Below, one piece after another: positions 1,882-29,019 of a DNA stretch of 64,000 nucleotides (positions are counted from its first letter, which is position 1; every line of letters begins with the position of its first letter). Origin of the DNA: Closterium sp. NIES-65 (taxonomy: Eukaryota > Streptophyta > Zygnematophyceae > Desmidiales > Closteriaceae); contig CANXME010002049.1 in the NCBI GenBank assembly GCA_948144175.1, forward strand, positions 1-64,000, in the 5' to 3' direction. The notes under the pieces were generated by a model. It was not told where the DNA came from. It did no database searches and worked only from the letters and a program-made list of their open reading frames with translations. The position numbers and the translations under genes were made by a program.

Positions 1882-1890
1882 GTGCGTTGT

Positions 1891-3026: not shown

Positions 3027-3086
3027 CCTCATCTCCCCTCCCCTCCCCTCTCCTCCCTCCCTCCCTCCCTCCCTCCCTCCCTCCCC
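3027..3086 (+). repeat. CCCT simple repeat / polypyrimidine tract
   Basis: CCCT-type simple repeat just upstream of CCGTGTTTCAG, acting as an exaggerated polypyrimidine tract. Also at 21400-21458 and about 47735-47787. Confidence 0.85.
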
Positions 3087-3095
3087 GTGTTTCAG

Positions 3096-3159
3096 CAGCT
3101 GCCAGCGGGGCGTGACAGTGCAGCACGGGGTGGGGCAAGCTGACGCGCACGCCCACGTG
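3096..3159 (+). CDS. Candidate coding exon (64 bp) between TTTCAG and GTAAGAG
   Basis: Flanked by acceptor CCGTGTTTCAG and donor CACGTG|GTAAGAG. One frame reads SCQRGVTVQHGVGQADAHAH. The frame in phase with exon 1693-1881 ends in TGA after 15 codons. The unit 4 copy (47793-47866) differs at a few sites, two of them synonymous in the SCQRG frame. The unit 2 copy starts at 21469. No family recognised, and the coding assignment is weak. Confidence 0.25.
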
Positions 3160-3903
3160 GTAAGAGTGAACCAGAACGATGCATGGATGTATGAACACAA
3201 AAGCAAAACAATGTACTAGGGCACATAAAAATCATGTGCCTTCTCATTCCCTCAAGGTGCCTTGCCGTTCCCTGCATGATGCCTTCTCATTCCTTGCATG
3301 ATGCCATTTTCCTCCCCTTTTCCAGCAGGTGCCAGTGCAAGGCATAATGTTTTGAGGTGTCACACTCAACACCTCCCCTCTGTCCTCCCGTTTCCAGCAG
3401 GTGCCAGTGTAGCGCATGTTGATTGAAGAGGTCTCACTCACCCCGTCCCCTCTTTCCATCCCAATATTTCCTGTTTGTTTGTTTGTTTGTCTGTTTCAGT
3501 TTGTTTTGCTTGCTTGTTTGTTGTTCCTGTGTGCATTCTTTGCTCAAGGGGAGACGTCCAAGCCACCCTCTCCCCTCCCCTTTCTGCCAGCTGCCAGTGC
3601 AGCGCCTGCCCATTTGAGCTTGTCTCACCCACCCCCTCCCCTCTTTTCCCACTTTACCCCTTCTGCCAGGTGCCTTCTCATGCCCTGCAAGGTGCCTTCG
3701 CATGTTGCACGGTGCCTTCACATGCCCTGCATGGTGCCTGTTCATGCCCTGGCTGGTGGGTTGCATTCCCTGCATGGTGACTTTCATTTCCTGCCAGGTA
3801 AGGGGGTAAGGGGGTTTAGGGTGCTCCCCCCGCTCACTTGCCCTGCTCCCCCCGCTCACTTGCTCTGCTCCCCCACCCCAACTCCTCCCCTCCCCTTGCG
3901 CAG

Positions 3904-4092
3904 GTGCCAGTTTCTCCTGTCGCCAAGATGAAGATACTTTGCACAGGGAGCAGATGCGTTGCCAGCTGCTTGTGCGGCCGTCCCTCATCATCCATGCGCG
4001 GGACATGAGAGAGAACAAGGGATGAGAAACAGAAGCAGGAGGAGGGAGCGCAGCGCCATGCCATGCTGCATGGCCCACCAAACCGGCCCCAG
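3904..4092 (+). pseudogene. Second copy of exon 1693-1881 in unit 1, compensated frame
   Basis: Same acceptor and donor as the first copy. It lost one base at GGAGCAG and gained one at GGGATGAGAAAC, so the middle is out of frame. The donor CCCCAG|GTGCG is kept. More decayed relatives with the CTCCTGTCGCCAAGA core follow at about 4277 and 4573, giving a graded series of copies. Confidence 0.5.
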
Positions 4093-4333
4093 GTGCGTTG
4101 TGAGTCGCCCCAGAGCATGCACTGCACACCTTGCCATATCCCTCACACCTGCCATCCCACCATGCCCTCACACCTCCTGCCATCCCCTCACTTGCCCTGC
4201 TCCCCCCGCTCACTTGCTCCGCTTCCCCTCTCCCCCACCCCCAACTCCCCCCCTCCCCTTGCGCAGGTGCCAGCTTCCCTCCTGTCGCCAAGACGAAGAC
4301 ACTTGGCTTGCAATGTGTAGAGTGGTAGGGATT

Positions 4334-4900
4334 GATGAATCTGATTACGTTAGGAACATAAATGTATGAGCCTGTTATTATATGTGCAGGGGGATGGGGG
4401 GAGTGCAGGTTTGGTTTGGGCCAGGTTTGGGATATGAAAGAGTGGCAGAAACGGAAACAGGGAGTAGATGTGTTGCCACCTGCTTGTGTTCAGCCATGCG
4501 CAGGGCAAGACATGAGGGAGAAGAAGAGAGAGAAACAGACGCACAAGGAGGGAGCGCATGTTCCATTTTCTCCTGTCGACAACACGAGGCTATTTGCTAC
4601 GACGCGTAGAGTGATAGATGACTTATAGATTTGATGACCTAGCGAATATGAATGTATGTGCTTGTTATTATATACGCAGGCGGGCAGAGAAAGGGGGGAG
4701 GGGTGAGGGAAAAGGGAGGGGAGTGGGGAGCAGAAGCAGAACAGAAGAGGGAGTGGTGGATGAGCTCTTGGCTCTCTGTGCTGTGCGCCCATCCCTGGTT
4801 GGCCATGCCATGCCATGCCCGGGAGGGATATGATAGATAGTAGGAAGCACAAAGTAGAAGCAGAAGCAGGAATGTGATATGACAGGGAGCAGATATGCAT
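4334..4900 (+). repeat. Diverged about 290-bp tandem module
   Basis: AATGTATGAGCCTGTTATTA at 4361 and AATGTATGTGCTTGTTATTA at 4651 start two copies 290 bp apart. Each runs through TATATxxGCAGG (acceptor-like) into a purine-rich block related to exon 1693-1881 (ATGAGxGAGAAxAAG...GAAACAGA). Equivalent pairs are at 22704-23270 and 49064-49630. The copies are clearly older than the macrosatellite duplication. Confidence 0.6.
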
Positions 4901-4934
4901 GGGCCATGCCCAGGGATTTCCAGGGCGGTTCGAG

Positions 4935-5040
4935 GGGGGCTGTGAGGGGCTGTGAGGAGAATTGGGGGGTAGGGGGGCCTTAGGGGGGCCTTGGGGGGGC
5001 TGTGGGGGGGTTTTTTCAGGATTTTAGGGGGGTTTTCTTC
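4935..5040 (+). other. G-tract cluster with G-quadruplex potential
   Basis: Many runs of four to seven G separated by short GCTGT/CCTT/ATT spacers on the plus strand (for example 4943-4948, 4974-4979, 4985-4990, 4995-5001, 5006-5012). Repeated at 23305-23410 and 49675-49765. No frame of interest. It separates the plus-strand exon-like blocks from the minus-strand part. Confidence 0.6.
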
Positions 5041-5610
5041 CCCTCTCTTGTACCCCATTTCTGCTTATTAACCAATCACAAGCAAGCTTTCTGCCATCAC
5101 CTTTCCGATTACGCTCATGTTGTCGCCTTGCCGCCTGAGGAGGGGGAGGGGAGTAAGGGGGGAAGGGAGAGGAGAGCAGAAGGGAGAGCAAGGGGGGATG
5201 AGAGAGACGATATGCGCTGCTTGTTTTGATTTGCACACAGAAGGAGAGTGTGAGAAGGAGAGTGAGAGAAGGAGGGTGTGAGAAGGAGAGTGTGAGAAGG
5301 AGTGCCATACAGTGAAGTACTCGGGTATCTTGGGCACTGCAAAGCAGAAGCGTTGCAAGGAATGTGATCAAGATGATCCAGGTGGTCCGGGGCCCTCCTC
5401 CTGAAATACGTATGTCAAGATGTTGACCAGAGTGGGAGCCAGGGCAGTGTATGTAAGGGGTGGTGTATGTAGGGGTGGGCAGGGCAGGTGCAAACGTAGG
5501 GGATAATGAGTGACAGAAACTGAAGGGAGAGTGAGAATTGAATCAAAGAGGGGGAGAAAGAAGAAAACTGGCACAAGTTCACTACAGGTAGGCAGGATAA
5601 GTGACCAGCA

Positions 5611-5801
5611 CAGGGGGGTGAAGTGACAAGGGCAGGGGGGTGAAGTGACAAGGGCAGGGGGGTGAAGTGACAAGGGCAGGGGGGTGAAGTGACAAGGGCA
5701 GGGGGGTGAAGTGACAAGGGCAGGGGGGTGAAGTGACAAGGGCAGGGGGGTGAAGTGACAAGGGCAGGGGGGTGAAGTGACAAGGGCAGGGGGGTGAAGT
5801 G
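5611..5801. repeat. 22-bp minisatellite (CAGGGGGGTGAAGTGACAAG), about 9 copies
   Basis: Near-perfect tandem 22-bp units. Three units equal 66 bp, which gives the spurious 22-residue protein period. Each unit has a six-G run. Unit 2 has an interrupted version at 23981-24210 and unit 4 has three copies at 50121-50180. Confidence 0.95.
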
Positions 5802-5818
5802 ATGAGACGTGCTTTCCT

Positions 5819-6106
5819 CACACCCACTGCCCCACACCCACTGCCCCACACCCACTGCCCCACACCCACTGCCCCACACCCACTGCCCCACACCCACTGC
5901 CTCACTCCCACTGCCCCACACCCACTGCCCCACACCCACTGCCCCACACCCACTGCCTCACACCCACTGCCCCACACCACTGCCCCACACCCACTGCCCC
6001 ACACCCACTGCCCCACACCCACTGCCCCACACCCACTGCCCCACACCCACTGCCCCACACCCACTGCCCCACACCCACTGCCCCACACCCACTACCCCAC
6101 ACCCAC
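5819..6106 (-). repeat. 14-bp minisatellite, about 20 copies, starting at a splice donor
   Basis: Tandem CACACCCACTGCCC units; on the minus strand GTGGGTGTGGGGCA. The high-coordinate end abuts the 3' end of TAN1-like exon C, whose donor reads CTCG|GTGGGTG. The array therefore looks like an expansion of the first bases of that intron. Same array in unit 2 at 24227-24515; absent from units 3 and 4. Confidence 0.95.
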
Positions 6107-6522
6107 CGAGTGGCTGACTGCTGGGTGGCCTTGGCATGCCGCAGCACCGCCTCTGCCAACTCACACGGCGACACCCTTCCCTGCTCTCCCCCTGCCTCCC
6201 CTTTCTCCCCCTCCCCTCCCTGTCCCTCCTTCTCCGGTTCCTTCTCTCCTCCTCCTGTAACCTCTTCCTCCTGCTCTTTCTCCTGCTCCTTTTCCCCGGC
6301 CTTATCCCCCTCCTTCCCCTCCTTGTCTCCTTCACCCTTCTCCTCCTCCTTTTCCCCTTCCTCCGTCTTCCCCACCTCCTCCTTCTCACCCTCCTCCTCC
6401 TTCTCCTCTCCCTCCTCCAACTGCTTTCCTCCCTTCTCTCCCTTCCCCCCCTTCCTGGCATCCTCTCTAATCCTCACGAACAGCAGTGCCTTGCACCCAG
6501 ACTCCACACTCACGAACCGAGG
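6107..6522 (-). pseudogene. THUMPD1/TAN1-like exon C (partial gene)
   Basis: Minus-strand exon from acceptor CCTCAG (6523-6525) to donor CTCG|GTGGGTG (6106/6107). It starts PRFVSVESGCKALLFVRI, matching the RRFQSVESGxNNVVFIRT signature of THUMPD1/TAN1, the THUMP-domain partner of the N4-acetylcytidine tRNA/rRNA acetyltransferase. A Glu/Lys/Gly-rich insert of about 100 residues follows, then LAEAVLRHAKATQQSATR, which aligns with the family's helix before the THUMP core. Phase 0 at its start agrees with exon B. The following THUMP exons (LRxLP region) were not found downstream, so this is a gene fragment. Confidence 0.7.
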
Positions 6523-6639
6523 CTGAGGGACGTCAAGGGGCGGGCGAATGGTAGGGGCAAGGGGAGGGAGAAAGACGAGTGGAGGGAGAAAGACGAGCGG
6601 AGGGAGAGGAGACGTGATTGGAAATTGCACTGAGCATTC

Positions 6640-7366
6640 TCACGAACAGCAGCGCCTTGCACCCAGAGTCCACACTCGCGAACCAAGGCTGTGGGATGTC
6701 GAGGGGAGGGCGAACAGCAGGGGCAAGGGGAGGGAGAAAGACGAGCAGAGAAAGGGGAGTGAGAGGGAGAGGGAGGGGTGATGATGGATCCTCAGAAACA
6801 GCGGCGCCTTGCACCTAGACTCCACACTCACAAACCGAGGCTGAGAGGGAAGGGGAGGGACAAGACGAGGGACAAAGGAAAAAAAAAAAACGTTTTTTCT
6901 CAAACAGCAGTGCCTTGCACCCAGACTCCACACTCACAAACCGAGGCTGAGGGATGTCAAGGGGCGGGCGAACAGGAGGGGCGAGGGGAGGGCAAACGGT
7001 AGGGGCAAGGGGAGGGAGAAAGACGATGGGAGAGAGAGGAGGAGCGATAAGGGTTTCCACTTAGCATTCTCGCAAACAGCGGCGCCTTGCAGCCAGCAAG
7101 AGTCCAAACAGCAGCGCCTTGCAGCCAGCGAGACTCCACACCCCGAAGTGAGACCAGGTGAGAGCGTTCAGTCAGGTGACTTTTGAGTCGACTCAAAAGT
7201 CACCAGGTGAGAGCGTTGAGGACAAGGGGAGGGACAAGACGAGGGGCAAGGGGAGGAAGAGGGAGGGAAAAGAGGATTGCGAGAGAGGGAAGTGATGGGT
7301 GTTTGTGCTGGGCATTTATGCGAACAGCAGCGCCTTGCACCCAGACTACACACTCATGAACCGAGG
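6640..7366 (-). repeat. Decayed copies ('echoes') of exon C 5' end in the B-C intron
   Basis: Cores related to the first 45 bp of exon C lie at 6640-6688, 6795-6840, 6901-6946, 7071-7138 (two short partials) and 7318-7366, all minus strand. Several keep CAG|CCTCGG at the start, the VSVESGCKALLF-type reading and a GTGAG after CTGTTC, so each could behave as a 45-bp mini-exon. They are embedded in GGGGCAAGGGGAGGGAGAAAGACGA-like purine-rich repeats. Same set at offset +18409 in unit 2. Confidence 0.7.
7175..7204. repeat. 30-bp perfect palindrome between direct repeats
   Basis: Perfect inverted repeat centred between 7189 and 7190, core TTTTGAGTCGACTCAAAA with GGTGAC/GTCACC ends. It lies between two copies of ACCAGGTGAGAGCGTT (7154-7169 and 7203-7218). 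Identical copy at 25584-25613. Confidence 0.95.
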
Positions 7367-7699
7367 CTGAGGGGCATGCCCAAGGAAGGGAGGGAGAAGA
7401 GAAAGGAGGGAACAAGGAGGCGAGGATGCACAAGGGGAACAAAACAGGGGCACCTGGTAGCCTGAGACGTCTCAAAACAGGGGCACCTGGTAGCCTGAGG
7501 TCACGATTGCAATCGAGCCTGGGGGACACAGGGAGAGGGAGGGATACGAGGGGAGGGAGTGGGAGGGAGATAAGGGGAGGGTGAAGGAACAACAAGGGGA
7601 AAGGAGGGAAAAGGCACCCACCTACCCATCCCACGCACCTGTGAGCCGCTGCAAAACACACACACCTGTTTCCTCAACCCCCTCTCCACACGCACGCAC

Positions 7700-7846
7700 C
7701 TGTTTCTTGAGTGCTGCCACTTCATTCGCCAGCAGCGCATCGATGGACGAACCCCCCTTCGCCTTCCCTGCAGATGCACCTTCCCCAGTCCGTGCCTCCC
7801 CCTCCCCCTCCCCCTGCGCCTTGCCAGCCTCCAGCTTGTCACACCA
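7700..7846 (-). pseudogene. THUMPD1/TAN1-like exon B (partial gene)
   Basis: 147 bp, phase 0 at both ends, from acceptor CACACACAG to donor AAGAAACAG|GTGCGTG. It reads WCDKLEAGKAQ, an acidic Gly/Glu linker, then SSIDALLANEVAALKKQ. This corresponds to the linker and the 'DVEAALKKEV' helix just before the RRFQSVESG motif in THUMPD1, so A-B-C order matches the family. The donor itself is echoed twice within the next 65 bp (GAGGAAACAG|GTGTGTG and CTCACAG|GTGCGTG). An unbroken frame suggests recent origin or residual constraint. Confidence 0.7.
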
Positions 7847-7879
7847 CTGTGTGTGGGGCAAACAGGGATAAAGCAACAT

Positions 7880-8340
7880 CATCTCAGGCAGATAAGCCCT
7901 CCCCAGCCGCCTTCCCCAGTGCTTGCCTCCCCCTCAGCCCGCACCTTCATGGGCACCAGATTGTCGCTCAACGGTGTGTGGGGCAAGCAGTGGAGATGGA
8001 AGGAGTAGGAACAACATCAGCTCAGTTAGAAAAGCCCTCCCCAGCCACCTTCCCCAGTGCTTGCCTCACCCTACCCGTTCCTCTGCGCCTTGCTGCCTCC
8101 AGCTTGTCACACCACTGTGTGTGGGGCGAACAGAGGAGAAAGCAACATCAGCTCAGTCAGATAAGCCCTCCCCAGCCACCTTCCCCAGTGCTTGCCTCCC
8201 CCTCAGCCCGCGCCTTCACGGGCACCAGCTTGCCGCCGCACAACGGCGTGTGGGGCAAGCAGGGGAGATGGAAGGAAGAAAAGCAAAAACAGCTCAGTCA
8301 GATAGGCCCTCCACAACCACTTTCCCCAGTGCTTGCCCAG
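7880..8340 (-). repeat. Decayed copies of exon B start in the A-B intron
   Basis: The CACACACAG/TGGTGTGACAAGCTGG junction of exon B recurs in degenerate form near 7955, 8101 and 8227, with a fifth fragment at about 8290-8340. Spacing alternates (122, 146, 126 bp), a dimeric 268-bp higher-order repeat. Between them lies the conserved filler GGGAAGGTGGCTGGGGAGGG. Confidence 0.65.
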
Positions 8341-8517
8341 TCATCTATCTACCTACCCTCCAGGTTCTATCGTTTGCCTGTGCGCCCCACTCACCTCCTT
8401 GCCACCTCACCTCATCAAGCTGATCCCCTGTGCATGTCACCTCACAAGCTGATCTCCTGATCACCTCTTACCACCCCCCCCACCCGTCCTCTCCCTCACT
8501 GTGTGCTCGTGCCTCAC

Positions 8518-8604
8518 CTCATCGAGCACGTTCACAATCTCCCGCCCGCACTCTCTCTCCCTGCCGGTCACACTCGACACCAGCCACCCCCTGCTGCCAT
8601 TCGC
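8518..8604 (-). pseudogene. THUMPD1/TAN1-like exon A (partial gene)
   Basis: Minus-strand exon ending GATGAG|GTGAGGC. It reads SRGWLVSSVTGRERECGREIVNVLDE at most, of which GRERECGREIVNVLDE matches the family's N-terminal 'GxxGxLxTCxxxxERxxxxEAxxLL' segment. The 5' boundary is uncertain (acceptor either CCTCAG near 8630 or GGCAG near 8596). The basic N-terminus expected upstream was not found. Phase 0 agrees with exon B. Confidence 0.6.
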
Positions 8605-8714
8605 GATAGGGCCCGCTCCCCCTCCACTCTGAGGCGCACGAGAGGGAGGCGCCGAAGAGGGAAGGAGGAGGATCAAAGGAACAATTTACTTTGTTTCGAC
8701 TCCAACAACAACAA

Positions 8715-8819
8715 GCCCGCACTCTCTCTCCCTGCTGGTCACACTCCACACCAGCCACCCCCTGTTGCCATTCGCGATGGGGCCCGCTCCCCCTCCACTC
8801 TGAGGCGCACGAGAGGGAG
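8715..8819 (-). repeat. Duplicate of exon A region (echo A1) and further fragment at 9160-9205
   Basis: 8715-8819 repeats 8544-8648 at an offset of 171 bp, including the NRGWLVWSVTSRERECG reading, but departs right where exon A continues to its donor. A shorter relative (AAAGRERECR) lies at 9160-9205. So exon A, like B and C, is preceded by truncated copies. Confidence 0.65.
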
Positions 8820-9040
8820 GAGCAGAAGGGGGAGGGGCACGAGGGGGAGGGGCGGAGCAGAAGGAGCAGAGGGGGGAGGAGCAGAAGACGGATGAGCAGA
8901 GGGGGGAGGAGAAGAATGGGGAGGAGGAGAAGGGGGAGGAGGAGAAATGGGGGAGGGGAGAAGGGTGAGGAGGAACAGCAGGTGGGGGCACAGAAGGGAG
9001 AGGAGGAGAGGAGCAGAAGGGGGGGGAGCAGAAGTAAGAA
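8820..9040 (+). repeat. Purine-rich GAGGAGCAGAAGGGG tract
   Basis: Degenerate 12-15-bp purine repeat on the plus strand (GGAGGAGCAGAAGGGGGAGG type), giving low-complexity frames on both strands. No gene. Copy at 27229-27449. Confidence 0.7.
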
Positions 9041-9230
9041 ACGGTTGCAAACCACCTCCAATCCCTCCCCCTGCCAGCCCCCTTGCTGCCATACATTCTG
9101 GGCGCCGCCTTCCCCCCATTCTGGATCATAGGGTTTAGGGTGAAGGAGCAAAGGAAGAAACAATCGATCCTTCACCTGCACTCTCGCTCCCTGCCTGCTG
9201 CTGCCCGCCGCCACTTCGAAAGAGGAGATC

Positions 9231-9345
9231 GAGGTTGGGGTTTTGGGTGCATGGGAGAGAGCGAGCAACAACAAAGGGTTTCGGGTTTTGGGTGCATGGG
9301 AGAGAGCGAGCAACAACCAAGAGTTTCGGGTTTTGGTTGCATGGC
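9231..9345 (+). repeat. 51-bp tandem repeat, about 2.3 copies
   Basis: GGTTTTGGGTGCATGGGAGA recurs at about 51-bp spacing, ending in GCGAGCAACAAC. Minor GGTTTAGGG-like text nearby is not telomeric. Copy at 27640-27754. Confidence 0.75.
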
Positions 9346-9469
9346 AACGGAGATTCGTGGGCCGGGATGTGGGAGGGAAGAGAGACGGCGGGGGTGGGGG
9401 GAGGGGAAGGGGGACAGCAGGGGTGGGGGGAGGGGAAGGGGGACAGCGGGCGACACGGGCCGGACGGGT

Positions 9470-9636
9470 GAGGACCAGAGGAGAGAGGCGACGGCGGGAA
9501 AATCCGCTCTGTGTAAGACCAAGTGCTCAAAGCGATATCAGGACCAGAGGGGAGAGGCGACAGCGGAAAAATCTGCTCTGTGTAAACCTAAGTGATCAAG
9601 GCGATCTGAGGACCAGAGGGGAGAGGCGGCGCCGTG
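9470..9636 (+). repeat. About 67-70-bp tandem repeat, 2.4 copies
   Basis: GAGGACCAGAGGGGAGAGGC recurs at 9470, about 9539 and about 9608, each followed (first two) by AAATCxGCTCTGTGTAA. Unit 2 copy at 27879-28045. Confidence 0.75.
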
Positions 9637-9639
9637 GGA

Positions 9640-10300
9640 GCACACGATGGGAGGAGGAGAAGAGAAGGGGGGAGGGAAGACGGAGGTGTGTGCGCGAGCG
9701 GGAGGAGAGGGCACGAAAGGAAAGGGGGGGAAGGGGTTGAAGAGGAAGGGCGGGAAGTGGGGCGGATCGGGCTGGTGAGCGCACGCCGCCGCGGAGATCA
9801 CAGCGGCGACGCCGCCAATCATAGCAGCGGCGACGCGCAACGGATGCTGCCGCGACTCGCGACCGAAACGCGACTGAACGCGCCTGCAGAATTGTCGCTG
9901 ATTATCGTCGTTATTCGTCTGTCAGCCAAGAAAAACATTGGTACACGCCTGCCGGGCGGTTTATGTTGACTAATGCGTCGCGACATAAGTTTAAAGGCTC
10001 ACAGCGTTCAGGTATCGCGACTTGTGCCGCTTCGATTTCCCCCGACCTCCATTACCGCTCCGATTGCCCTCCGCCTCGCGCTTTCCGCGACCCATGTGCG
10101 ATTGTATGGCCGTGGCTACCGATCAAACGAGGGAAACGGTCAGGGGCTGATGTTTACAACAATAATATATATTTCAACTTATACAAATTCTTCTCAGGAC
10201 CAGTAGCACAAACCTCCAATCATAGGTGATTAGCGGGGTTCAATGCCCGCCTGGTTCTTTTGTTTTATCCACCTCAAGGCTCCGTTTCCATTCAAATCTT
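9640..10300. other. Low-repeat stretch, no gene assigned
   Basis: This part of the module is less repetitive and has normal composition. It includes CGCGAC-rich DNA (9780-9880) and an AT-rich patch (10150-10195). A minus-strand frame opens MIGGVAAVISAAACAHQ at about 9822, which could be an N-terminal exon, but nothing supports it further. A TTTAAACTTAT patch at 9983-9993 on the minus strand is a weak TATA candidate. Same at offset +18409. Confidence 0.35.
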
Positions 10301-10302
10301 AT

Positions 10303-10480
10303 CTAAAGGTGTTTTCTTACTGCTCTGGGGCATTCTTCTTTCATATCATACTCGTCGTCGCATCCCTTCTTGTTGTAAGCCTTAACCATCTTGACTGGTT
10401 TTTTCCGGACGTGCTTGTCGTCTACACCTTCGTTGTGTTGCTTCGTTGGTGTAGGAGATTTTTCTTTACTGGCACACCTC
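10303..10480 (-). CDS. Possible terminal exon of unknown gene (Lys-rich, about 54 aa)
   Basis: Minus strand reads KEKSPTPTKQHNEGVDDKHV, then a Lys-rich stretch and ...ECPRAVRKHL before TAG. Its composition is unlike the flanking repeats and looks protein-like. It could be the last exon of a minus-strand gene whose upstream part lay in the 21-bp array region. Exact copy at 28712-28889; absent from units 3 and 4. No family recognised. Confidence 0.25.
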
Positions 10481-10610
10481 GACCACCACACTGGCACGCC
10501 CCATGCCCTGTCACCTCACCCATGTGCTCTACAGCAGGGCTACTGGCGTCACGCCCCACCACCAGCACCAGGCTATCAGCAGCGAGTCCAGCACCCACAC
10601 ACCCCGTGCC

Positions 10611-13600
10611 CTGCTCTGCTGCACCACTCACCTGCTCTGCTGCACCACTCACCTGCTCTGCCGCACCACTCACCTGCTCTGCTGCACCACTCACCTGCTC
10701 AGCCGCACCACTCACCTGCTCTGCTGCACCACTCACCTGCTCTGCCGCACCACTCACCTGCTCTGCCGCACCACTCACCTGCTCTGCCGCACCACTCACC
10801 TGCTCTGCCGCACCACTCACCTGCTCTGCCGCACCACTCACCTGCTCTGCCGCACCACCCACCTGCTCTGCCGCACCACCCACCTGCTCTGCCGCACCAC
10901 TCACCTGCTCTGCCGCACCACCCACCTGCTCTGCCGCACCACTCACCTGCTCTGCTGCACACTCACCTGCTCTGCCGCACCACTCACCTGCTCTGCCGCA
11001 CCACTCACCTGCTCTGCCGCACCACTCACCTGCTCTGCCGCACCACTCACCTGCTCTGCCGCACCACTCACCTGCTCTGCCGCACCACTCACCTGCTCTG
11101 CCGCACCACTGACCTGCTCTGCCGCACCACTCACCTGCTCTGCCGCACCACTCACCTGCTCTGCCGCACCACTCACCTGCTCTGCCGCACCACTCACCTG
11201 CTCTGCCGCACCACTCACCTGCTCTGCCGCACCACTCACCTGCTCTGCCGCACCACTCACCTGCTCTGCCGCACCACTCACCTGCTCTGCCGCACCACTC
11301 ACCTGCTCTGCCGCACCACTCACCTGCTCTGCCGCACCACTCACCTGCTCTGCCGCACCACTCACCTGCTCTGCCGCACCACTCACCTGCTCTGCCGCAC
11401 CACTCACCTGCTCTGCCGCACCACTCACCTGCTCTGCCGCACCCCGCACCACTCACCTGCTCTGCCGCACCACTCACCTGCTCTGCTGCACCACTCACCT
11501 GCTCTGCTGCACCACTCACCTGCTCTGCCGCACCACTCACCTGCTCTGCCGCACCACTCACCTGCTCTGCTGCACCACTCACCTGCTCTGCTGCACCACT
11601 CACCTGCTCTGCTGCACCACTCACCTGCTCTGCTGCACCACTCACCTGCTCTGCTGCACCACTCACCTGCTCTGCTGCACCACTCACCTGCTCTGCCGCA
11701 CCACTCACCTGCTCTGCCGCACCACTCACCTGCTCTGCCGCACCACTCACCTGCTCTGCCGCACCACTCACCTGCTCTGCCGCACCACTCACCTGCTCTG
11801 CCGCACCACTCACCTGCTCTGCCGCACCACTCACCTGCTCTGCCGCACCACTCACCTGCTCTGCTGCACCACTCACCTGCTCTGCCGCACCACTCACCTG
11901 CTCTGCCGCACCACTCACCTGCTCTGCCGCACCACTCACCTGCTCTGCCTGCACCACTCACCTGCTCTGCCTGCACCACTCACCTGCTCTGCCGCACCAC
12001 TCACCTGCTCTGCCGCACCACTCACCTGCTCTGCCGCACCACTCACCTGCTCTGCCGCACCACTCACCTGCTCTGCCGCACCACTCACCTGCTCTGCCGC
12101 ACCACTCACCTGCTCTGCCGCACCACTCACCTGCTCTGCCGCACCACTCACCTGCTCTGCCGCACCACTCACCTGCTCTGCCGCACCACTCACCTGCTCT
12201 GCCGCACCACTCACCTGCTCTGCCGCACCACTCACCTGCTCTGCCGCACCACTCACCTGCTCTGCCGCACCACTCACCTGCTCTGCCGCACCACTCACCT
12301 GCTCTGCCGCACCACTCACCTGCTCTGCCGCACCACTCACCTGCTCTGCCGCACCACTCACCTGCTCTGCCGCACCACTCACCTGCTCTGCCGCACCACT
12401 CACCTGCTCTGCCGCACCACTCACCTGCTCTGCCGCACCACTCACCTGCTCTGCCGCACCACTCACCTGCTCTGCCGCACCACTCACCTGCTCTGCCGCA
12501 CCACTCACCTGCTCTGCTGCACCACTCACCTGCTCTGCCGCACCACTCACCTGCTCTGCCGCACCACTCACCTGCTCTGCCGCACCACTCACCTGCTCTG
12601 CCGCACCACTCACCTGCTCTGCCGCACCACTCACCTGCTCTGCCGCACCACTCACCTGCTCTGCCGCACCACTCACCTGCTCTGCCGCACCACTCACCTG
12701 CTCTGCCGCACCACTCACCTGCTCTGCCTGCACCACTCACCTGCTCTGCCGCACCACTCACCTGCTCTGCCGCACCACTCACCTGCTCTGCCGCACCACT
12801 CACCTGCTCTGCCGCACCACTCACCTGCTCTGCCGCACCACTCACCTGCTCTGCCGCACCACTCACCTGCTCTGCCGCACCACTCACCTGCTCTGCTGCA
12901 CCACTCACCTGCTCTGCCGCACCACTCACCTGCTCTGCCGCACCACTCACCTGCTCTGCCGCACCACTCACCTGCTCTGCTGCACCACTCACCTGCTCTG
13001 CCGCACCACTCACCTGCTCTGCCGCACCACTCACCTGCTCTGCCGCACCACTCACCTGCTCTGCCGCACCACTCACCTGCTCTGCCGCACCACTCACCTG
13101 CTCTGCCGCACCACTCACCTGCTCTGCCGCACCACTCACCTGCTCTGCGCACCACTCACCTGCTCTGCCGCACCACTCACCTGCTCTGCCGCACCACTCA
13201 CCTGCTCTGCCGCACCACTCACCTGCTCTGCCGCACCACTCACCTGCTCTGCCGCACCACTCAACCTGCTCTGCCGCACCACTCACCTGCTCTGCCGCAC
13301 CACTCACCTGCTCTGCCGCACCACTCACCTGCTCTGCCGCACCACTCACCTGCTCTGCCGCACCACTCACCTGCTCTGCCGCACCACTCACCTGCTCTGC
13401 CGCACCACTCACCTGCTCTGCCGCACCACTCACCTGCTCTGCCGCACCACTCACCTGCTCTGCCGCACCACTCACCTGCTCTGCCGCACCACTCACCTGC
13501 TCTGCCGCACCACTCACCTGCTCTGCCGCACACTCACCTGCTCTGCCGCACCACTCACCTGCTCTGCCGCACCACTCACCTGCTCTGCCGCACCACTCAC

Positions 13601-16600
13601 CTGCTCTGCCGCACCACTCACCTGCTCTGCCGCACCACTCACCTGCTCTGCCGCACCACTCACCTGCTCTGCCGCACCACTCACCTGCTCTGCCGCACCA
13701 CTCACCTGCTCTGCTGCACCACTCACCTGCTCTGCCGCACCACTCACCTGCTCTGCCGCACCACTCACCTGCTCTGCCGCACCACTCACCTGCTCTGCCG
13801 CACCACTCACCTGCTCTGCCGCACCACTCACCTGCTCTGCCGCACCACTCACCTGCTCTGCCGCACCACTCACCTGCTCTGCCGCACCACTCACCTGCTC
13901 TGCCGCACCACTCACCTGCTCTGCCGCACCACTCACCTGCTCTGCCGCACCACTCACCTGCTCTGCCGCACCACTCACCTGCTCTGCCGCACCACTCACC
14001 TGCTCTGCCGCACCACTCACCTGCTCTGCCGCACCACTCACCTGCTCTGCCGCACCACTCACCTGCTCTGCCGCACCACTCACCTGCTCTGGCACCTGCC
14101 GCACCACTCACCTGCTCTGCCGCACCACTCACCTGCTCTGCCGCACCACTCACCTGCTCTGCCTGCACCACTCACCTGCTCTGCCGCACCACTCACCTGC
14201 TCTGCCGCACCACTCACCTGCTCTGCCGCACCACTCACCTGCTCTGCCGCACCACTCACCTGCTCTGCCGCACCACTCACCTGCTCTGCCACACCACTCA
14301 CCTGCTCTGCCGCACCACTCACCTGCTCTGCTGCACCACTCACCTGCTCTGCCGCACCATCTCACCTGCTCTGCCGCACCACTCACCTGCTCTGCCGCAC
14401 CACTCACCTGCTCTGCCGCACCACTCACCTGCTCTGCCGCACCACTCACCTGCTCTGCTGCACCACTCACCTGCTCTGCCGCACCACTCACCTGCTCTGC
14501 CGCACCACTCACCTGCTCTGCCGCACCACTCACCTGCTCTGCCGCACCACTCACCTGCTCTGCCGCACCACTCACCTGCTCTGCCGCACCACTCAGCTGC
14601 TCTGCCGCACCACTCACCTGCTCTGCTGCACCACTCACCTGCTCTGCTGCACCACTCACCTGCTCTGCCGCACCTACTCACCTGCTCTGCCGCACCACTC
14701 ACCTGCTCTGCCGCACCACTCACCTGCTCTGCCGCACCACTCACCTGCTCTGCCGCACCACTCACCTGCTCTGCCGCACCACTCACCTGCTCTGCCGCAC
14801 CACTCACCTGCTCTGCCGCACCACTCACCTGCTCTGCCGCACCACTCACCTGCTCTGCCGCACCACTCACCTGCTCTGCCGCACCACTCACCTGCTCTGC
14901 CGCACCACTCACCTGCTCTGCTGCACCACTCACCTGCTCTGCCGCACCACTCACCTGCTCTGCCGCACCACTCACCTGCTCTGCCGCACCACTCACCTGC
15001 TCTGCCGCACCACTCACCTGCTCTGCCGCACCACTCACCTGCTCTGCCGCACCACTCACCTGCTCTGCCGCACCACTCACCTGCTCTGCCGCACCACTCA
15101 CCTGCTCTGCCGCACCACTCACCTGCTCTGCCGCACCACTCACCTGCTCTGCCGCACCACTCACCTGCTCTGCCGCACCACTCACCTGCTCTGCCGCACC
15201 ACTCACCTGCTCTGCCGCACCACTCACCTGCTCTGCCGCACCACTCACCTGCTCTGCCGCACCACTCACCTGCTCTGCCGCACCACTCACCTGCTCTGCC
15301 GCACCACTCACCTGCTCTGCCGCACCACTCACCTGCTCTGCCGCACCACTCACCTGCTCTGCCGCACCACTCACCTGCTCTGCCGCACCACTCACCTGCT
15401 CTGCCGCACCACTCACCTGCTCTGCCGCACCACTCACCTGCTCTGCCGCACCACTCACCTGCTCTGCCGCACCACTCACCTGCTCTGCCGCACCACTCAC
15501 CTGCTCTGCCGCACCACTCACCTGCTCTGCCGCACCACTCACCTGCTCTGCCGCACCACTCACCTGCTCTGCCGCACCACTCACCTGCTCTGCCGCACCA
15601 CTCACCTGCTCTGCCGCACCACTCACCTGCTCTGCCGCACCACTCACCTGCTCTGCCGCACCACTCACCTGCTCTGCCGCACCACTCACCTGCTCTGCTG
15701 CACCACTCACCTGCTCTGCCGCACCACTCACCTGCTCTGCCGCACCACTCACCTGCTCTGCCGCACCACTCACCTGCTCTGCTGCACCACTCACCTGCTC
15801 TGCCGCACCACTCACCTGCTCTGCCGCACCACTCACCTGCTCTGCCGCACCACTCACCTGCTCTGCCGCACCACTCACCTGCTCTGCCGCACCACTCACC
15901 TGCTCTGCCGCACCACTCACCTGCTCTGCCGCACCACTCACCTGCTCTGCCGCACCACTCACCTGCTCTGCTGCACCACTCACCTGCTCTGCCGCACCAC
16001 TCACCTGCTCTGCCGCACCACTCACCTGCTCTGCCGCACCACTCACCTGCTCTGCCGCACCACTCACCTGCTCTGCCGCACCACTCACCTGCTCTGCCGC
16101 ACCACTCACCTGCTCTGCCGCACCACTCACCTGCTCTGCCGCACCACTCACCTGCTCTGCTGCACCACTCACCTGCTCTGCCGCACCACTCACCTGCTCT
16201 GCCGCACCACTCACCTGCTCTGCCGCACCACTCACCTGCTCTGCCGCACCACTCACCTGCTCTGCCTGCACCACCCACCTGCTCTGCCGCACCACCCACC
16301 TGCTCTGCCGCACCACTCACCCTGCTCTGCCGCACCACCCACCTGCTCTGCCGCACCACTCACCTGCTCTGCCGCACCACTCACCTGCTCTGCCGCACCA
16401 CCCACCTGCTCTGCCGCACCACTCACCTGCTCTGCCGCACCACCCACCTGCTCTGCCGCACCACTCACCTGCTCTGCCGCACCACACACCTGCTCTGCCG
16501 CACCACCCACCTGCTCTGCCGCACCACTCACCTGCTCTGCCGCACCACCCACCTGCTCTGCCGCACCACTCACCTGCTCTGCCGCACCACTCCACCTGCT

Positions 16601-17338
16601 CTGCCGCACCACTCACCTGCTCTGCCGCACCACTCACCTGCTCTGCTCTGCCGCACCACTCACCTGCTCTGCCGCACCACTCACCTGCTCTGCCGCACCA
16701 CTCACCTGCTCTGCCGCACCACCCACCTGCTCTGCCGCACCACTCACATGCTCTGCCGCACCACTCACCTGCTCTGCCGCACCACTCACCTGCTCTGCCG
16801 CACCACTCACCTGCTCTGCTGCACCACTCACCTGCTCTGCCGCACCACTCACCTGCTCTGCCGCACCACTCACCTGCTCTGCCGCACCACTCACCTGCTC
16901 TGCCGCACCACTCACCTGCTCTGCCGCACACTCACCTGCTCTGCCGCACCACTCACCTGCTCTGCCGCACCACTCACCTGCTCTGCCGCACCACTCACTG
17001 CTCTGCCGCACCACCTCACCTCTGCCGCACCACTCACCTGCTCTGCCGCACCACTCACCTGCTCTGCCGCACCACTCACCTGCTCTGCCGCACCACTCAC
17101 CTGCTCTGCCGCACCACTCACCTGCTCTGCCGCACCACTCACCTGCTCTGCCGCACCACTCACCTGCTCTGCCGCACCACTCACCTGCTCTGCCGCACCA
17201 CTCACCTGCTCTGCCGCACCACTCACCTGCTCTGCTGCACCACTCACCTGCTCTGCCGCACCACTCACCTGCTCTGCCGCACCACTCACCTGCTCTGCTG
17301 CACCACTCACCTGCTCTGCTGCACCACTCACCTGCTCT
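10611..17338 (-). repeat. 21-bp minisatellite, array 1, about 320 copies
   Basis: Tandem 21-bp units containing CTCTGCCGCACCACTCACC. Read on the minus strand each unit contains GAGCAG|GTGAGTGG, a near-consensus 5' splice site. Variants: TGC/CGC in the GCYGCAC position, CACCCAC, CACACAC and ACATG forms. None of the three plus frames contains a stop, so indels never close the plus ORF; on the minus strand two frames are open (GAAEQVS and GEWCGRA heptads) and the third has TGA in every unit. These long frames are therefore not evidence of genes. Confidence 0.97.
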
Positions 17339-19509: not shown

Positions 19510-21399
19510 GAGTCATTTGACCAATCCCCTCCTCTGTCCCCTTTGTTTTGAGTCATTTGACCAATCCCCTCCTCTCTCCTCTTTGTTTTGAGCCATTTGA
19601 CCAATCCCCTCCTCTCTCCCCTCTGTTTTGAGTCATTGACCAATCCCCTCCTCTCTCCTTTTGGTTTTGAGTCATTTGACCAATCCCCTCCTCTCTTCCC
19701 CCTGTTTTGAGTCATTTGACCAATCCCCTACTCTCTCCCCTCTGTTTTGAGTCATTTGACCAATCCCCTCCTCTCTCCTCTTTGTTTTGAGTCATTTCAC
19801 CAATCCCCTCCTCTCTCCCCTCAGTTTTGAGTCATTTCACCAATCCCCTCCTCTCTCCTCTCTGTTTTGAGTCATTTGACCAATCCCCTCCTCTCTCCTC
19901 TTTGTTTTGAGTCATTTGACCAATCCCCTCCTCTCTCCTCTCTGTTTTGAGTCATTTGACCAATCCCCTCCTCTCTCTCTGTTTTGAGTCATTTCACCTA
20001 TCCCCTCCTCTCTCCTCTTTGTTTTGACTCATTTGACCAATCCCCTCCTCTCTCCCCTCAGTTTTGAGTCTTTTCACCAATCCCCTCCTCTCTCCTCTTT
20101 GTTTTGAGTCATTTGACCAATCCCCTCCTCTCTCCCCTCTGTTTTGAATCATTTGACCAATCCCCTCCTATCTCCCCTCCGTTCTGAGTCAGTTGACCAA
20201 TCCCCTCTTCTCTCCCCTCTGTTTTGAGCCATTTGACCAATCCCCTCCTCTCTCCCCTTTGTTTTGAGTAATTTGACCAATACCTTCCTCTCTCCTCTTT
20301 GTTTTGAGTCATTTGACCAATCCCCTCCTCTCTCCCCTCTGTTTTGAGTCATTTGACCAATCCCCTCCTCTCTCCTCTTTGTTTTGAGTCATTTGACCAA
20401 TCCCCTCCTCTCTTCCCCTTTATTTTGAGCAATTTGACCAATCCCCTCCTCTCTTCCCCCTGTTTTGAGTCATTTGACCAATCCCCTACTCTCTCCCCTC
20501 TGTTTTGAGTCATTTGACCAATCCCCTCCTCTCTCCTCTTTGTTTTGAGTCATTTGACCAATCCCCTCCTCTCTTCCCCCTGTTTTGAGTCATTTGACCA
20601 ATCCCCTACTCTCTCCCCTCTGTTTTGAGTCATTTGACCAATCCCCTCATCTCTCCTATTCGTTTTGAGTCATTTAACCAATTCCCTCCTCTCTCCTCTT
20701 TGTTTCGAGTCATTTCACCAATCCCCTCCTCTCTCTCCTCTTTGTTTTGAGTCATTTGACCAATCCCCTCCTCTCTCCCCTCAGTTTTGAGTCATTTCAC
20801 CAATCCCCTCCTCTCTCCTCTCTGTTTTGAGTCATTTGACCAATCCCCTCCTCTCTCCTATTTGTTTTGAGTCATTTGTCCAATCCCCTCCTCTCTCCTA
20901 TTTGTTTTGAGTCATTTGACCAATCCCCTCCTCTCTCTCTGTTTTGAGTCATTTCACCTATCCCCTCCTCTCTCCTCTTTGTTTCGACTCATTTGACCAA
21001 TCCCCTCCTCTCTCCCCTCAGTTTTGAGTCTTTTCACCAATCCCCTCCTCTCTCCTCTTTGTTTTGAGTCATTTGACCAATCCCCTCGTCTCTCCCCTCT
21101 GTTTTGAATCATTTGACCAATCCCCTCCTATCTCCCCTCTGTTCTGAGTCATTTGACCAATCCCCTCTTCTCTCCCCTCTGTTTTGAGCCATTTGACCAA
21201 TCCCCTCCTCTCTCTCTGTTTTGAGTCATTTCACCTATCCCCTCCTCTCTCCTCTTTGTTTCGACTCATTTGACCAATCCCCTCCTCTCTCCCCTCAGTT
21301 TTGAGTCTTTTCACCAATCCCCTCCTCTCTCCTCTTTGTTTTGAGTCATTTGACCAATCCCCTCCTCTCTCCCCTCTGTTTCGAGTCATTTGACCAATG
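19510..21399 (+). repeat. 40-bp minisatellite, about 47 copies
   Basis: Same family and position as 1891-3026. The right end (from about 20640) matches the unit 1 array closely, while the left is shared with unit 4, so units 2 and 4 grew by internal duplication on the left. Confidence 0.95.
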
Positions 21400-22275
21400 C
21401 CTCATCTCCCCTCCCCTCCCCTCTCCTCCCTCCCTCCCTCCCTCCCTCCCTCCCTCCCCGTGTTTCAGCAGCTGCCAGCGGGGCGTGACAGTGCAGCACG
21501 GGGTGGGGCAAGCTGACGCGCACGCCCACGTGGTAAGAGTGAACCAGAACGATGCATGGATGTATGAACACAAAAGCAAAACAATGTACTAGGGCACATA
21601 AAAATCATGTGCCTTCTCATTCCCTCAAGGTGCCTTGCCGTTCCCTGCATGATGCCTTCTCATTCCTTGCATGATGCCATTTTCCTCCCCTTTCCAGCAG
21701 GTGCCAGTGCAAGGCATAATGTTTTGAGGTGTCACACTCAACACCTCCCCTCTGTCCTCCCGTTTCCAGCAGGTGCCAGTGTAGCGCATGTTGATTGAAG
21801 AGGTCTCACTCACCCCGTCCCCTCTTTCCATCCCAATATTTCCTGTTTGTTTGTTTGTTTGTCTGTTTCAGTTTGTTTTGCTTGCTTGTTTGTTGTTCCT
21901 GTGTGCATTCTTTGCTCAAGGGGAGACGTCCAAGCCACCCTCTCCCCTCCCCTTTCTGCCAGCTGCCAGTGCAGCGCCTGCCCATTTGAGCTTGTCTCAC
22001 CCACCCCCTCCCCTCTTTTCCCACTTTACCCCTTCTGCCAGGTGCCTTCTCATGCCCTGCAAGGTGCCTTCGCATGTTGCACGGTGCCTTCACATGCCCT
22101 GCATGGTGCCTGTTCATGCCCTGGCTGGTGGGTTGCATTCCCTGCATGGTGACTTTCATTTCCTGCCAGGTAAGGGGGTAAGGGGGTTTAGGGTGCTCCC
22201 CCCGCTCACTTGCCCTGCTCCCCCCGCTCACTTGCTCTGCTCCCCCACCCCAACTCCTCCCCTCCCCTTGCGCAG

Positions 22276-22463
22276 GTGCCAGTTTCTCCTGTCGCCAAGA
22301 TGAAGATACTTTGCACAGGGAGCAGATGCGTTGCCAGCTGCTTGTGCGGCCGTCCCTCATCATCCATGCGCGGGACATGAGAGAGAACAAGGGAGAGAAA
22401 CAGAAGCAGGAGGAGGGAGCGCAGCGCCATGCCATGCTGCATGGCCCACCAAACCGGCCCCAG
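22276..22463 (+). pseudogene. Second exon copy in unit 2, frameshifted
   Basis: Corresponds to 3904-4092 but has only the one-base deletion (188 bp). Acceptor and donor are kept. Further decayed relatives follow in the 290-bp module at 22704-23270. Confidence 0.45.
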
Positions 22464-23980
22464 GTGCGTTGTGAGTCGCCCCAGAGCATGCACTGCACAC
22501 CTTGCCATATCCCTCACACCTGCCATCCCACCATGCCCTCACACCTCCTGCCATCCCCTCACTTGCCCTGCTCCCCCCGCTCACTTGCTCCGCTTCCCCT
22601 CTCCCCCACCCCAACTCCCCCCCTCCCCTTGCGCAGGTGCCAGCTTCCCTCCTGTCGCCAAGACGAAGACACTTGGCTTGCAATGTGTAGAGTGGTAGGG
22701 ATTGATGAATCTGATTACGTTAGGAACATAAATGTATGAGCCTGTTATTATATGTGCAGGGGGATGGGGGGAGTGCAGGTTTGGTTTGGGCCAGGTTTGG
22801 GATATGAAAGAGTGGCAGAAACGGAAACAGGGAGTAGATGTGTTGCCACCTGCTTGTGTTCAGCCATGCGCAGGGCAAGACATGAGGGAGAAGAAGAGAG
22901 AGAAACAGACGCACAAGGAGGGAGCGCATGTTCCATTTTCTCCTGTCGACAACACGAGGCTATTTGCTACGACGCGTAGAGTGATAGATGACTTATAGAT
23001 TTGATGACCTAGCGAATATGAATGTATGTGCTTGTTATTATATACGCAGGCGGGCAGAGAAAGGGGGGAGGGGTGAGGGAAAAGGGAGGGGAGTGGGGAG
23101 CAGAAGCAGAACAGAAGAGGGAGTGGTGGATGAGCTCTTGGCTCTCTGTGCTGTGCGCCCATCCCTGGTTGGCCATGCCATGCCATGCCCGGGAGGGATA
23201 TGATAGATAGTAGGAAGCACAAAGTAGAAGCAGAAGCAGGAATGTGATATGACAGGGAGCAGATATGCATGGGCCATGCCCAGGGATTTCCAGGGCGGTT
23301 CGAGGGGGGCTGTGAGGGGCTGTGAGGAGAATTGGGGGGTAGGGGGGCCTTAGGGGGGCCTTGGGGGGGCTGTGGGGGGGTTTTTTCAGGATTTTAGGGG
23401 GGTTTTCTTCCCCTCTCTTGTACCCCATTTCTGCTTATTAACCAATCACAAGCAAGCTTTCTGCCATCACCTTTCCGATTACGCTCATGTTGTCGCCTTG
23501 CCGCCTGAGGAGGGGGAGGGGAGTAAGGGGGGAAGGGAGAGGAGAGCAGAAGGGAGAGCAAGGGGGGATGAGAGAGACGATATGCGCTGCTTGTTTTGAT
23601 TTGCACACAGAAGGAGAGTGTGAGAAGGAGAGTGAGAGAAGGAGGGTGTGAGAAGGAGAGTGTGAGAAGGAGTGCCATACAGTGAAGTACTCGGGTATCT
23701 TGGGCACTGCAAAGCAGAAGCGTTGCAAGGAATGTGATCAAGATGATCCAGGTGGTCCGGGGCCCTCCTCCTGAAATACGTATGTCAAGATGTTGACCAG
23801 AGTGGGAGCCAGGGCAGTGTATGTAAGGGGTGGTGTATGTAGGGGTGGGCAGGGCAGGTGCAAACGTAGGGGATAATGAGTGACAGAAACTGAAGGGAGA
23901 GTGAGAATTGAATCAAAGAGGGGGAGAAAGAAGAAAACTGGCACAAGTTCACTACAGGTAGGCAGGATAAGTGACCAGCA

Positions 23981-24210
23981 CAGGGGGGTGAAGTGACAAG
24001 GGCAGGGGGGTGAAGTGACAAGGGCAGGGGGGTGAAGTGACAAGGGCAGGGGGGTGAAGTCAAGAGAGTAGGGGGGAGAAGGGACAAGGGCAGGGGGGTG
24101 AAGTGACAAGGGCAGGGGGTGAGTGAAGGCAGGGGGTGAAGTGACAAGGGCAGGGGGGTGAAGTGACAAGGGCAGGGGGGTGAAGTGACAAGGGCAGGGG
24201 GGTGAAGTGA
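23981..24210. repeat. 22-bp minisatellite, unit 2
   Basis: Same family as 5611-5801 but with degenerate units at about 24060-24135, including GTCAAGAGAGTAGGGGGGAG. Confidence 0.9.
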
Positions 24211-24226
24211 TGAGACGTGCTTTCCT

Positions 24227-24515
24227 CACACCCACTGCCCCACACCCACTGCCCCACACCCACTGCCCCACACCCACTGCCCCACACCCACTGCCCCACA
24301 CCCACTGCCTCACTCCCACTGCCCCACACCCACTGCCCCACACCCACTGCCCCACACCCACTGCCTCACACCCACTGCCCCACACCCACTGCCCCACACC
24401 CACTGCCCCACACCCACTGCCCCACACCCACTGCCCCACACCCACTGCCCCACACCCACTGCCCCACACCCACTGCCCCACACCCACTGCCCCACACCCA
24501 CTACCCCACACCCAC
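24227..24515 (-). repeat. 14-bp minisatellite, unit 2
   Basis: Copy of 5819-6106, again abutting the exon C donor at 24516. Confidence 0.95.
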
Positions 24516-24931
24516 CGAGTGGCTGACTGCTGGGTGGCCTTGGCATGCCGCAGCACCGCCTCTGCCAACTCACACGGCGACACCCTTCCCTGCTCTCCCC
24601 CTGCCTCCCCTTTCTCCCCCTCCCCTCCCTGTCCCTCCTTCTCCGGTTCCTTCTCTCCTCCTCCTGTAACCTCTTCCTCCTGCTCTTTCTCCTGCTCCTT
24701 TTCCCCGGCCTTATCCCCCTCCTTCCCCTCCTTGTCTCCTTCACCCTTCTCCTCCTCCTTTTCCCCTTCCTCCGTCTTCCCCACCTCCTCCTTCTCACCC
24801 TCCTCCTCCTTCTCCTCTCCCTCCTCCAACTGCTTTCCTCCCTTCTCTCCCTTCCCCCCCTTCCTGGCATCCTCTCTAATCCTCACGAACAGCAGTGCCT
24901 TGCACCCAGACTCCACACTCACGAACCGAGG
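24516..24931 (-). pseudogene. THUMPD1/TAN1-like exon C, unit 2 copy
   Basis: Copy of 6107-6522 with no difference that I noticed, including the Glu/Lys-rich insert and both splice sites. Echo copies follow at 25049-25775. Confidence 0.7.
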
Positions 24932-25583: not shown

Positions 25584-25613
25584 GGTGACTTTTGAGTCGA
25601 CTCAAAAGTCACC
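25584..25613. repeat. 30-bp palindrome, unit 2 copy
   Basis: Same as 7175-7204, including flanking direct repeats. Confidence 0.95.
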
Positions 25614-28889: not shown

Positions 28890-29019
28890 GACCACCACAC
28901 TGGCACGCCCCATGCCCTGTCACCTCACCCATGTGCTCTACAGCAGGGCTACTGGCGTCACGCCCCACCACCAGCACCAGGCTATCAGCAGCGAGTCCAG
29001 CACCCACACACCCCGTGCC

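What the first reader, a model, noticed from the sequence alone, without database searches (positions are those of the whole stretch)
10611..17338. A minisatellite made of hundreds of tandem 5' splice sites
Every 21-bp unit reads CAG|GTGAGT on the minus strand, eight of nine positions of the sequence perfectly complementary to U1 snRNA. Arrays 1-4 together hold about 850 such sites, all in one orientation and the same as the TAN1-like exons. If transcribed from that strand, the RNA would be an unusually dense U1-binding platform and could titrate U1 or suppress nearby polyadenylation.
Basis: partly seen in the sequence, partly recalled or inferred. Interest (0 to 1): 0.7.

Follow-up and report, generated by a model that had tools for sequence, protein, structure and literature searches.

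The report
Minisatellites built from copied splice sites
This stretch holds hundreds of head-to-tail copies of a strong splice-donor sequence, and smaller arrays of the same design sit across the ends of exons in some other genes of this genome, so it is most likely the overgrown descendant of a small duplication at an exon edge rather than a device for soaking up splicing factors.

Summary
Four arrays of a 21-bp unit carry 848 units and 777 exact CAGGTGAGT sites, all on the minus strand. Four strong U1 genes fetched from the same genome begin ATACTTACCTG, which pairs with the unit. The unit occurs in 24,449 adjacent pairs genome-wide.

A U1 sponge has no support: donor positions are no better conserved than the rest of the unit, and Pfam found no gene beside the arrays in the parts scanned.

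The wider finding concerns other genes. In four gene models from this genome, tandem arrays straddle 12 of 38 splice donors but 1 of 38 acceptors (Fisher p = 0.0014). Ending each exon at the first donor gives CSN4 and AP-2 alpha proteins with no gap at the ten array junctions tested. Tandem CAGGTGAGT outside the main family gave 751 places; two mutated words gave 37 and 24.

Best reading: a donor-straddling minisatellite, amplified and copied with its surrounding block, probably neutral. That this unit began at an exon end is inferred. RNA data are missing.

The parts
10610..17338 (-). Array A1: 319 units of 21 bp, 298 exact CAGGTGAGT sites
29019..36341 (-). Array A2: 347 units, 318 exact sites (TRF joins A2 and A3 in one row; split by site positions)
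38375..41880 (-). Array A3: 166 units, 146 exact sites; its downstream (low-coordinate) end is cut off and joined to other block sequence near 38363
50708..51054 (-). Array A4: 16 units, 15 exact sites; shares the downstream flank of A1 and A2 but has another upstream flank
1886..17338 (.). Segmental duplication copy containing A1; matches 20261-35753 at 98.6% over 15.5 kb
20261..35753 (.). Second copy of that block, containing most of A2
6500..7933 (-). TAN1-like peptide fragments, with several decayed copies of one exon-like piece; identification recalled, no Pfam domain found

Best explanation
The 21-bp repeat is most likely an overgrown donor-straddling minisatellite. Step 1 (outcome shown in other genes): a short tandem duplication copies the last bases of an exon, usually with its 5' splice site. 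Step 2 (inferred, supported by protein models): the first, upstream copy still ends the exon correctly, so all further copies fall into the intron and escape selection on the protein. A short duplication over an acceptor would instead put an extra AG upstream and lengthen the exon, which fits the rarity of arrays there. Step 3 (inferred): the array lengthens by slippage or unequal exchange, up to 32 copies in the AP-2 alpha gene. Step 4 (copying shown, cause inferred): this family ran away to hundreds of copies per array and was carried along by segmental duplication, three of its four arrays here lying in one repeated block. No function of the arrays is needed. That this particular unit began at an exon end is inferred from its kind, not shown.
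For: The unit carries a full-consensus donor in one orientation in all four arrays. TRF arrays straddle 12 of 38 donors and 1 of 38 acceptors in four gene models: CSN4 4/13, AP-2 alpha 7/12, ADIP-like 1/9, kinase 0/4 (p = 0.0014, or 0.0027 without the two arrays that led to AP-2 alpha and ADIP). Random non-exonic placement predicts 1.24 and 1.07 straddled donors against 4 and 7 in CSN4 and AP-2 alpha, p = 0.017 and none of 20,000 simulations (the AP-2 alpha figure includes the array that led to the gene). CSN4 came from a random sample. Exons ended at the first donor give CSN4 with no gap over 390 residues against chain 9is6_D (E 1.4e-170; four array junctions) and AP-2 alpha with no gap at six of its seven array junctions, the seventh being the end of the model (E 2.3e-130; three gaps lie elsewhere). 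Non-family CAGGTGAGT pairs 12-41 bp apart: 751 places, of which the first 100 fall in 27 loci and 18 unit families. Mutated words: CAGCTGAGT 37 places, CAGGAGAGT 24 places. Block duplication.
Against: No coding exon was recognised next to the window's arrays in the parts scanned, nor next to the C104 array. Three kinds of upstream flank are seen (A1, A4, L013), so the founding exon, if any, is not identified. The gene sample is small and uneven: one kinase gene shows 0 of 4 and the ADIP-like gene only the array that led to it. One CSN4 array is weak (17 bp x 2.3, score 56). In the random sample, units with a near-consensus donor were 5 of 90 against 1 of 90 in reversed controls, which is not decisive; 3 of the 5 are the CSN4 arrays and the other 2 look like retrotransposon coding repeats. 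Pair counts are swayed by single satellites: the backward control of one mutated word gave 7,107. In 4 of 10 arrays the first donor is weaker than a later one. No transcripts were available, so first-donor use is inferred.
Confidence: 0.58

Rival explanations
1. U1 platform: minus-strand RNA of the arrays binds many U1 particles, titrating U1 or suppressing nearby polyadenylation, and is kept for that reason.
For: Four strong U1 genes fetched begin ATACTTACCTG, pairing with the exact units (duplex -14.7 kcal/mol). 24,449 adjacent unit pairs exist. U1 bound downstream of a donor can aid exon definition (PMC4822034, abstract and passages).
Against: No RNA evidence. Donor positions differ from consensus in 0.72% of cells (0.39% without one common variant) against 0.31% elsewhere in the unit, so no sign of constraint. 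No gene found beside the arrays in the parts scanned. The RNA may also fold on itself, though not significantly more than shuffles (z -1.65).
Confidence: 0.1
2. Coincidence: an ordinary GC-rich minisatellite whose unit happens to contain a donor.
For: The genome is rich in minisatellites: 124 overlapping TRF rows in this window, many without a donor by eye. A 21-mer has roughly a 1 in 6,000 chance of holding a given 9-mer on either strand (own arithmetic), so among very many arrays some will. No exon was found beside this one.
Against: Many unit families elsewhere hold the same word in tandem, and words changed at +1 or +2 do so far less. Donor-straddling arrays are directly seen in genes.
Confidence: 0.25
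3. Coding repeat: 21 bp is seven codons, so the array encodes a heptapeptide-repeat protein.
For: Long plus-strand frames are open across A1 (2,332, 2,301 and 2,085 codons); two minus-strand frames of the unit are open (own reading).
Against: The plus-strand frames are open because the unit lacks stops on that strand; units of other lengths shift the frame repeatedly. The one Pfam hit over A4 (ice-binding beta roll) is on the repeat itself and looks like a low-complexity match.
Confidence: 0.04
4. Assembly effect: array lengths and single-base indels partly reflect long-read assembly of satellites.
For: Single-base insertions at scattered unit positions; 4 of 19 random stretches are tandem repeat nearly throughout, so the assembly holds much of such DNA.
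Against: The unit and its orientation recur in array contexts with different flanks, so the feature itself is real.
Confidence: 0.03

Closest known systems
Human CBS 31-bp VNTR at the exon 13-intron 13 boundary (PMC5188458 and PMC1395315, passages read)
   Same: A minisatellite lying across an exon-intron boundary, in a variable number of copies.
   Different: A single human locus in those sources; here 12 of 38 donors in four genes are straddled, and one family has run to hundreds of units. That each CBS unit carries the donor is recalled, not read.
Internal tandem repeats at exon-intron boundaries of human segmentally duplicated genes (PMC2812944, passages)
   Same: Minisatellites of about 30 bp, some at exon-intron boundaries, in segmental duplications, which can change splicing or form new introns.
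   Different: There about 4 copies on average and 27 intron modifications in human duplicated genes; here longer arrays, a donor-over-acceptor bias, and protein models that fit the first donor.
Intron gain by tandem genomic duplication of AGGT-containing exon segments (PMC3443670, passages; PMC4974935 seen in search listing only)
   Same: Short tandem duplications at sites resembling splice sites.
   Different: That model makes a new intron between two copies; here existing introns lengthen at their 5' end.
Excess of tandem repeats near intron ends in Chlamydomonas and Volvox (PMC3887541, passages)
   Same: Green algal genomes with tandem repeats near intron-exon junctions.
   Different: Reported as a U-shape at both ends, with GT/AC the abundant intron motif; the passages read do not describe units containing the donor.

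Membership tests
Donor-straddling minisatellite (CBS-VNTR-like) | Array crosses an exon-intron boundary and begins inside the exon | tested here: met
   For AP-2 alpha, CSN4 and ADIP-like genes: 12 of 38 donors, the kinase gene (0 of 4) included in the 38. Not for the window arrays, see next row.
Donor-straddling minisatellite (CBS-VNTR-like) | The window's own arrays adjoin a coding exon | tested here: inconclusive
   No Pfam domain in the flanks scanned: 1-9990, 17339-19500 and 48300-52900, both strands, apart from one hit on the repeat itself; three different upstream flanks.
Donor-straddling minisatellite (CBS-VNTR-like) | Unit contains a donor matching the organism's U1 | tested here: met
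   777 exact sites in 848 units; the four fetched of 10 U1 matches over the cut-off begin ATACTTACCTG.
Satellite / amplified minisatellite | Long homogeneous head-to-tail arrays at several places | tested here: met
U1 decoy RNA | Transcribed RNA that binds U1 | not testable with these tools
   No RNA data on hand.
Introner element | Dispersed element with its own splice sites and insertion marks | not tested
   No search for insertion marks was made; the arrays in genes are local copies of the neighbouring exon end, which does not suggest insertion.
Coding tandem repeat | Reading frame kept along the array | tested here: not met
   Site spacings of 20, 22, 23, 24 and 28 bp interrupt the 21-bp frame.

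The most novel reading that the evidence does not exclude
In this genome the 5' ends of introns act as a nursery for minisatellites, so that many introns begin with arrays of tandem donors, and these arrays are used: they give U1 many landing places just downstream of the working donor, which strengthens exon definition (a possibility raised in general terms in PMC4822034, passage) or suppresses premature polyadenylation in long, repeat-rich introns, with the 21-bp family as an extreme case that has left genes.
Probability: 0.1. Interest if true: 0.85.

Novelty: new variant of a known kind. Interest (0 to 1): 0.6.

Why it matters
If it holds genome-wide, a large share of introns in one genome begin with tandem copies of their own exon end and donor. 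That would be a natural experiment on how the spliceosome chooses among identical donors, a route by which introns grow, and a reason why duplications survive at donors but not at acceptors. It also gives a simple origin for a large satellite family.

Tried and rejected
U1 sponge: looked for constraint on the donor positions of the unit; none found. Coding repeat: rejected because of frame-shifting units. TAN1 context: Pfam scans of both strands of 1-9990 gave nothing; the resemblance stays a recollection. The Pfam hits LbR_Ice_bind over A4 and DUF3540 over the C104 array are on repeats and were set aside. Random genome sample: 19 of 20 stretches returned; conserved host genes were recognised in two (L025, L031), retrotransposon pieces in several; it did not settle unit enrichment, and single-word counts in it were too few to use. 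Not scanned with Pfam: 9991-17338 and 19501-48299 (mostly arrays and block copies) and the plus strand beyond 52900.

Left unfinished because the genome machine stayed busy: the repeat of the pair test with AAGGTGAGT and AAGCTGAGT, a TCP-1 family search for unselected genes, and the flanks of 12 further tandem-donor loci. Paper searches: nine used; the one for minisatellite with exon-intron junction and donor splice site found 0 papers. They cover one open library only.

Corrections of my own: I took a decayed downstream exon copy of AP-2 alpha as real; searches use the better upstream copy. One search has a wrong acceptor for AP-2 alpha exon 5, put right with no change in the array counts. 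The loci and families were typed by hand from the 100 places listed.

Full report
What is there. The window lies on contig C1751 (556,129 bases) of an 874-Mb assembly of 2,400 contigs. TRF finds a 21-bp array at 10610-17338. A wrap-around alignment gives 848 units in four arrays; 777 exact CAGGTGAGT lie on the minus strand and none on the plus strand. Arrays A1 to A3 lie in a tandemly repeated block: 1886-17338 matches 20261-35753 at 98.6%, and two further long matches tie A1, A2 and A3 together. A1, A2 and A3 share one upstream flank; A4 has another but shares the downstream flank of A1 and A2; the downstream end of A3 is cut off. U1 and CSN4 suggest a green-lineage eukaryote; this is recall and inference.

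U1. Rfam U1 matches 12 places, 10 over the cut-off. Five were fetched. The four over the cut-off begin ATACTTACCTG; the fifth, below it, begins ATTGTTATTTA and looks like a pseudogene. So the unit does pair with this genome's U1. That says what the sequence could bind, not that it is transcribed.

Spread. The exact pair CAGGTGAGTGGTGC[AG]GCAGAGCAGGTGAGT occurs 12,834 + 11,615 = 24,449 times, and 0 times read backwards. The looser pair with any 12 bases between occurs 25,996 times against 16 backwards. Contig C179 carries parts of the same block with shorter arrays, in one orientation in the places listed.

Constraint. Over 848 units, donor positions depart from consensus in 55 of 7,632 cells (30 without one common A-to-G variant) and the other positions, leaving out the G/A polymorphic one, in 29 of 9,328. 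The donor is not the best kept part of the unit.

Other loci. Among the first 100 places listed, three loci other than the main family appeared: C104, C106 and C136. C106 proved to be an AP-2 alpha gene and C136 an ADIP-like gene (Pfam; exons read by eye); in both the array crosses an exon end. At C104 no exon was recognised. A random stretch, L025, turned out to be a COP9 signalosome subunit 4 gene, and another, L031, a protein kinase gene (read by eye).

Architecture. In CSN4, exon ends such as ...CAGTACAAG|GTG (26 bp, 4.3 copies)...GGCGGCAA|GTGAGT (22 bp, 10.3) and ...GACCAG|GTGAGG (19 bp, 4.3) are repeated into the intron, and ...TATAAG|GTGCCA weakly (17 bp, 2.3). In AP-2 alpha the same is seen at ...CACCATG|GTATGC (21 bp, 32 copies)...ACACATG|GTGAGT (32 bp, 11.9)...GCGCTG|GTACGG (20 bp, 2.1)...GCCCTC|GTGAGT (79 bp, 6.5)...ATATCAG|GT (29 bp, 29.1)...CTGCAG|GT (21 bp, 4.8) and ...GTGAAG|GTGAGA (30 bp, 21). 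In the 29-bp case the unit is exon sequence only. The one straddled acceptor is that of AP-2 alpha exon 12 (104 bp, 3.3 copies). Across the four gene models 12 of 38 donors and 1 of 38 acceptors are straddled, p = 0.0014; leaving out the two arrays through which AP-2 alpha and ADIP were found, p = 0.0027. The spread is uneven: CSN4 4/13, AP-2 alpha 7/12, ADIP-like 1/9, kinase 0/4. Donors within a gene are not independent, so the p-values are a guide.

Which donor. Exons ended at the first donor of each array give a CSN4 protein that aligns without a gap over 390 residues to chain 9is6_D, across all four of its array junctions. The corrected AP-2 alpha model (445 residues) aligns to chain 9pwb_A with three gaps, none at the six array junctions inside the model; the seventh array is at its end and is untested. 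For several arrays later donors would break the frame; in the 21-bp (exon 2) and 30-bp AP-2 alpha arrays 28 of 28 and 18 of 19 later copies keep it, so there the frame alone does not exclude inner donors. For exon 2 the gapless match argues for the first; for the 30-bp array nothing here does. In 4 of 10 arrays a later donor fits the consensus better than the first, which makes RNA evidence important.

Genome-wide test. Tandem CAGGTGAGT outside the main family (two bases after the word not G, starts 12-41 bp apart) gave 751 places, 11 backwards. The first 100 cover 27 loci and 18 unit families after merging similar spacers. The same search with +1 changed to C gave 37 places in 3 families at 8 loci, and with +2 changed to A 24 places at 5 loci, 18 backwards (families and loci counted by eye). 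Against this: the backward control of the +1 word gave 7,107 places, so a single satellite can dominate a pair count; families are the safer measure. The background frequency of single donors was not measured well enough to correct for it. Several of the families share GCTTCAGGTGAGTT and may be related, so the number of independent origins is below 18. Whether these loci sit at exon ends was tested for two of them only (C104 no exon seen, C136 yes).

Reading. Short tandem duplications seem common in this genome: partial exon copies also lie in introns before acceptors, at longer spacing (seen by eye). At donors a short duplication leaves the upstream exon end intact, and everything after it becomes intron. 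That explains survival at donors and scarcity at acceptors without any function. The 21-bp family fits as one that expanded far and was copied with its block. The missing link is an exon next to it.

Known work. Boundary minisatellites are known at human CBS and in human duplicated genes; tandem repeats crowd intron ends in two green algae. In the nine paper searches listed in Tried and rejected, which cover one open library and of which I read listings and some passages, I saw no account of tandem donor arrays across many introns of one genome.

Noticed in passing
window 53024-54547, minus: Open frame with a copia-type reverse transcriptase domain (RVT_2, E 1.8e-47); flanking frames look like the rest of the element.
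   Followed up: no
window about 63004-63219, minus: hAT transposase dimerisation region (E 2.5e-14).
   Followed up: no
window 1886-3025, 19505-21398, 44045-47745: A 40-bp minisatellite with 28, 47 and 93 copies in three block copies, so copy number changes fast.
   Followed up: no
L015, L022, L027, L028: Four of 19 random 10-kb stretches are tandem repeat nearly throughout.
   Followed up: no
L010, L038, L039, L031: Decayed partial exon copies lie in introns next to the real exons, often upstream of an acceptor.
   Followed up: partly
C136:120286, C418:718877, C1492:857032: The same donor array word occurs on three contigs, so the assembly holds duplicated regions or separated haplotypes.
   Followed up: no
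L037: A weak U1 copy with a changed 5' end (ATTGTTATTTA), probably a pseudogene.
   Followed up: no
window 51466-51759: A second minisatellite (13 bp) that reads CTCAGGTG on the minus strand, close to A4.
   Followed up: no
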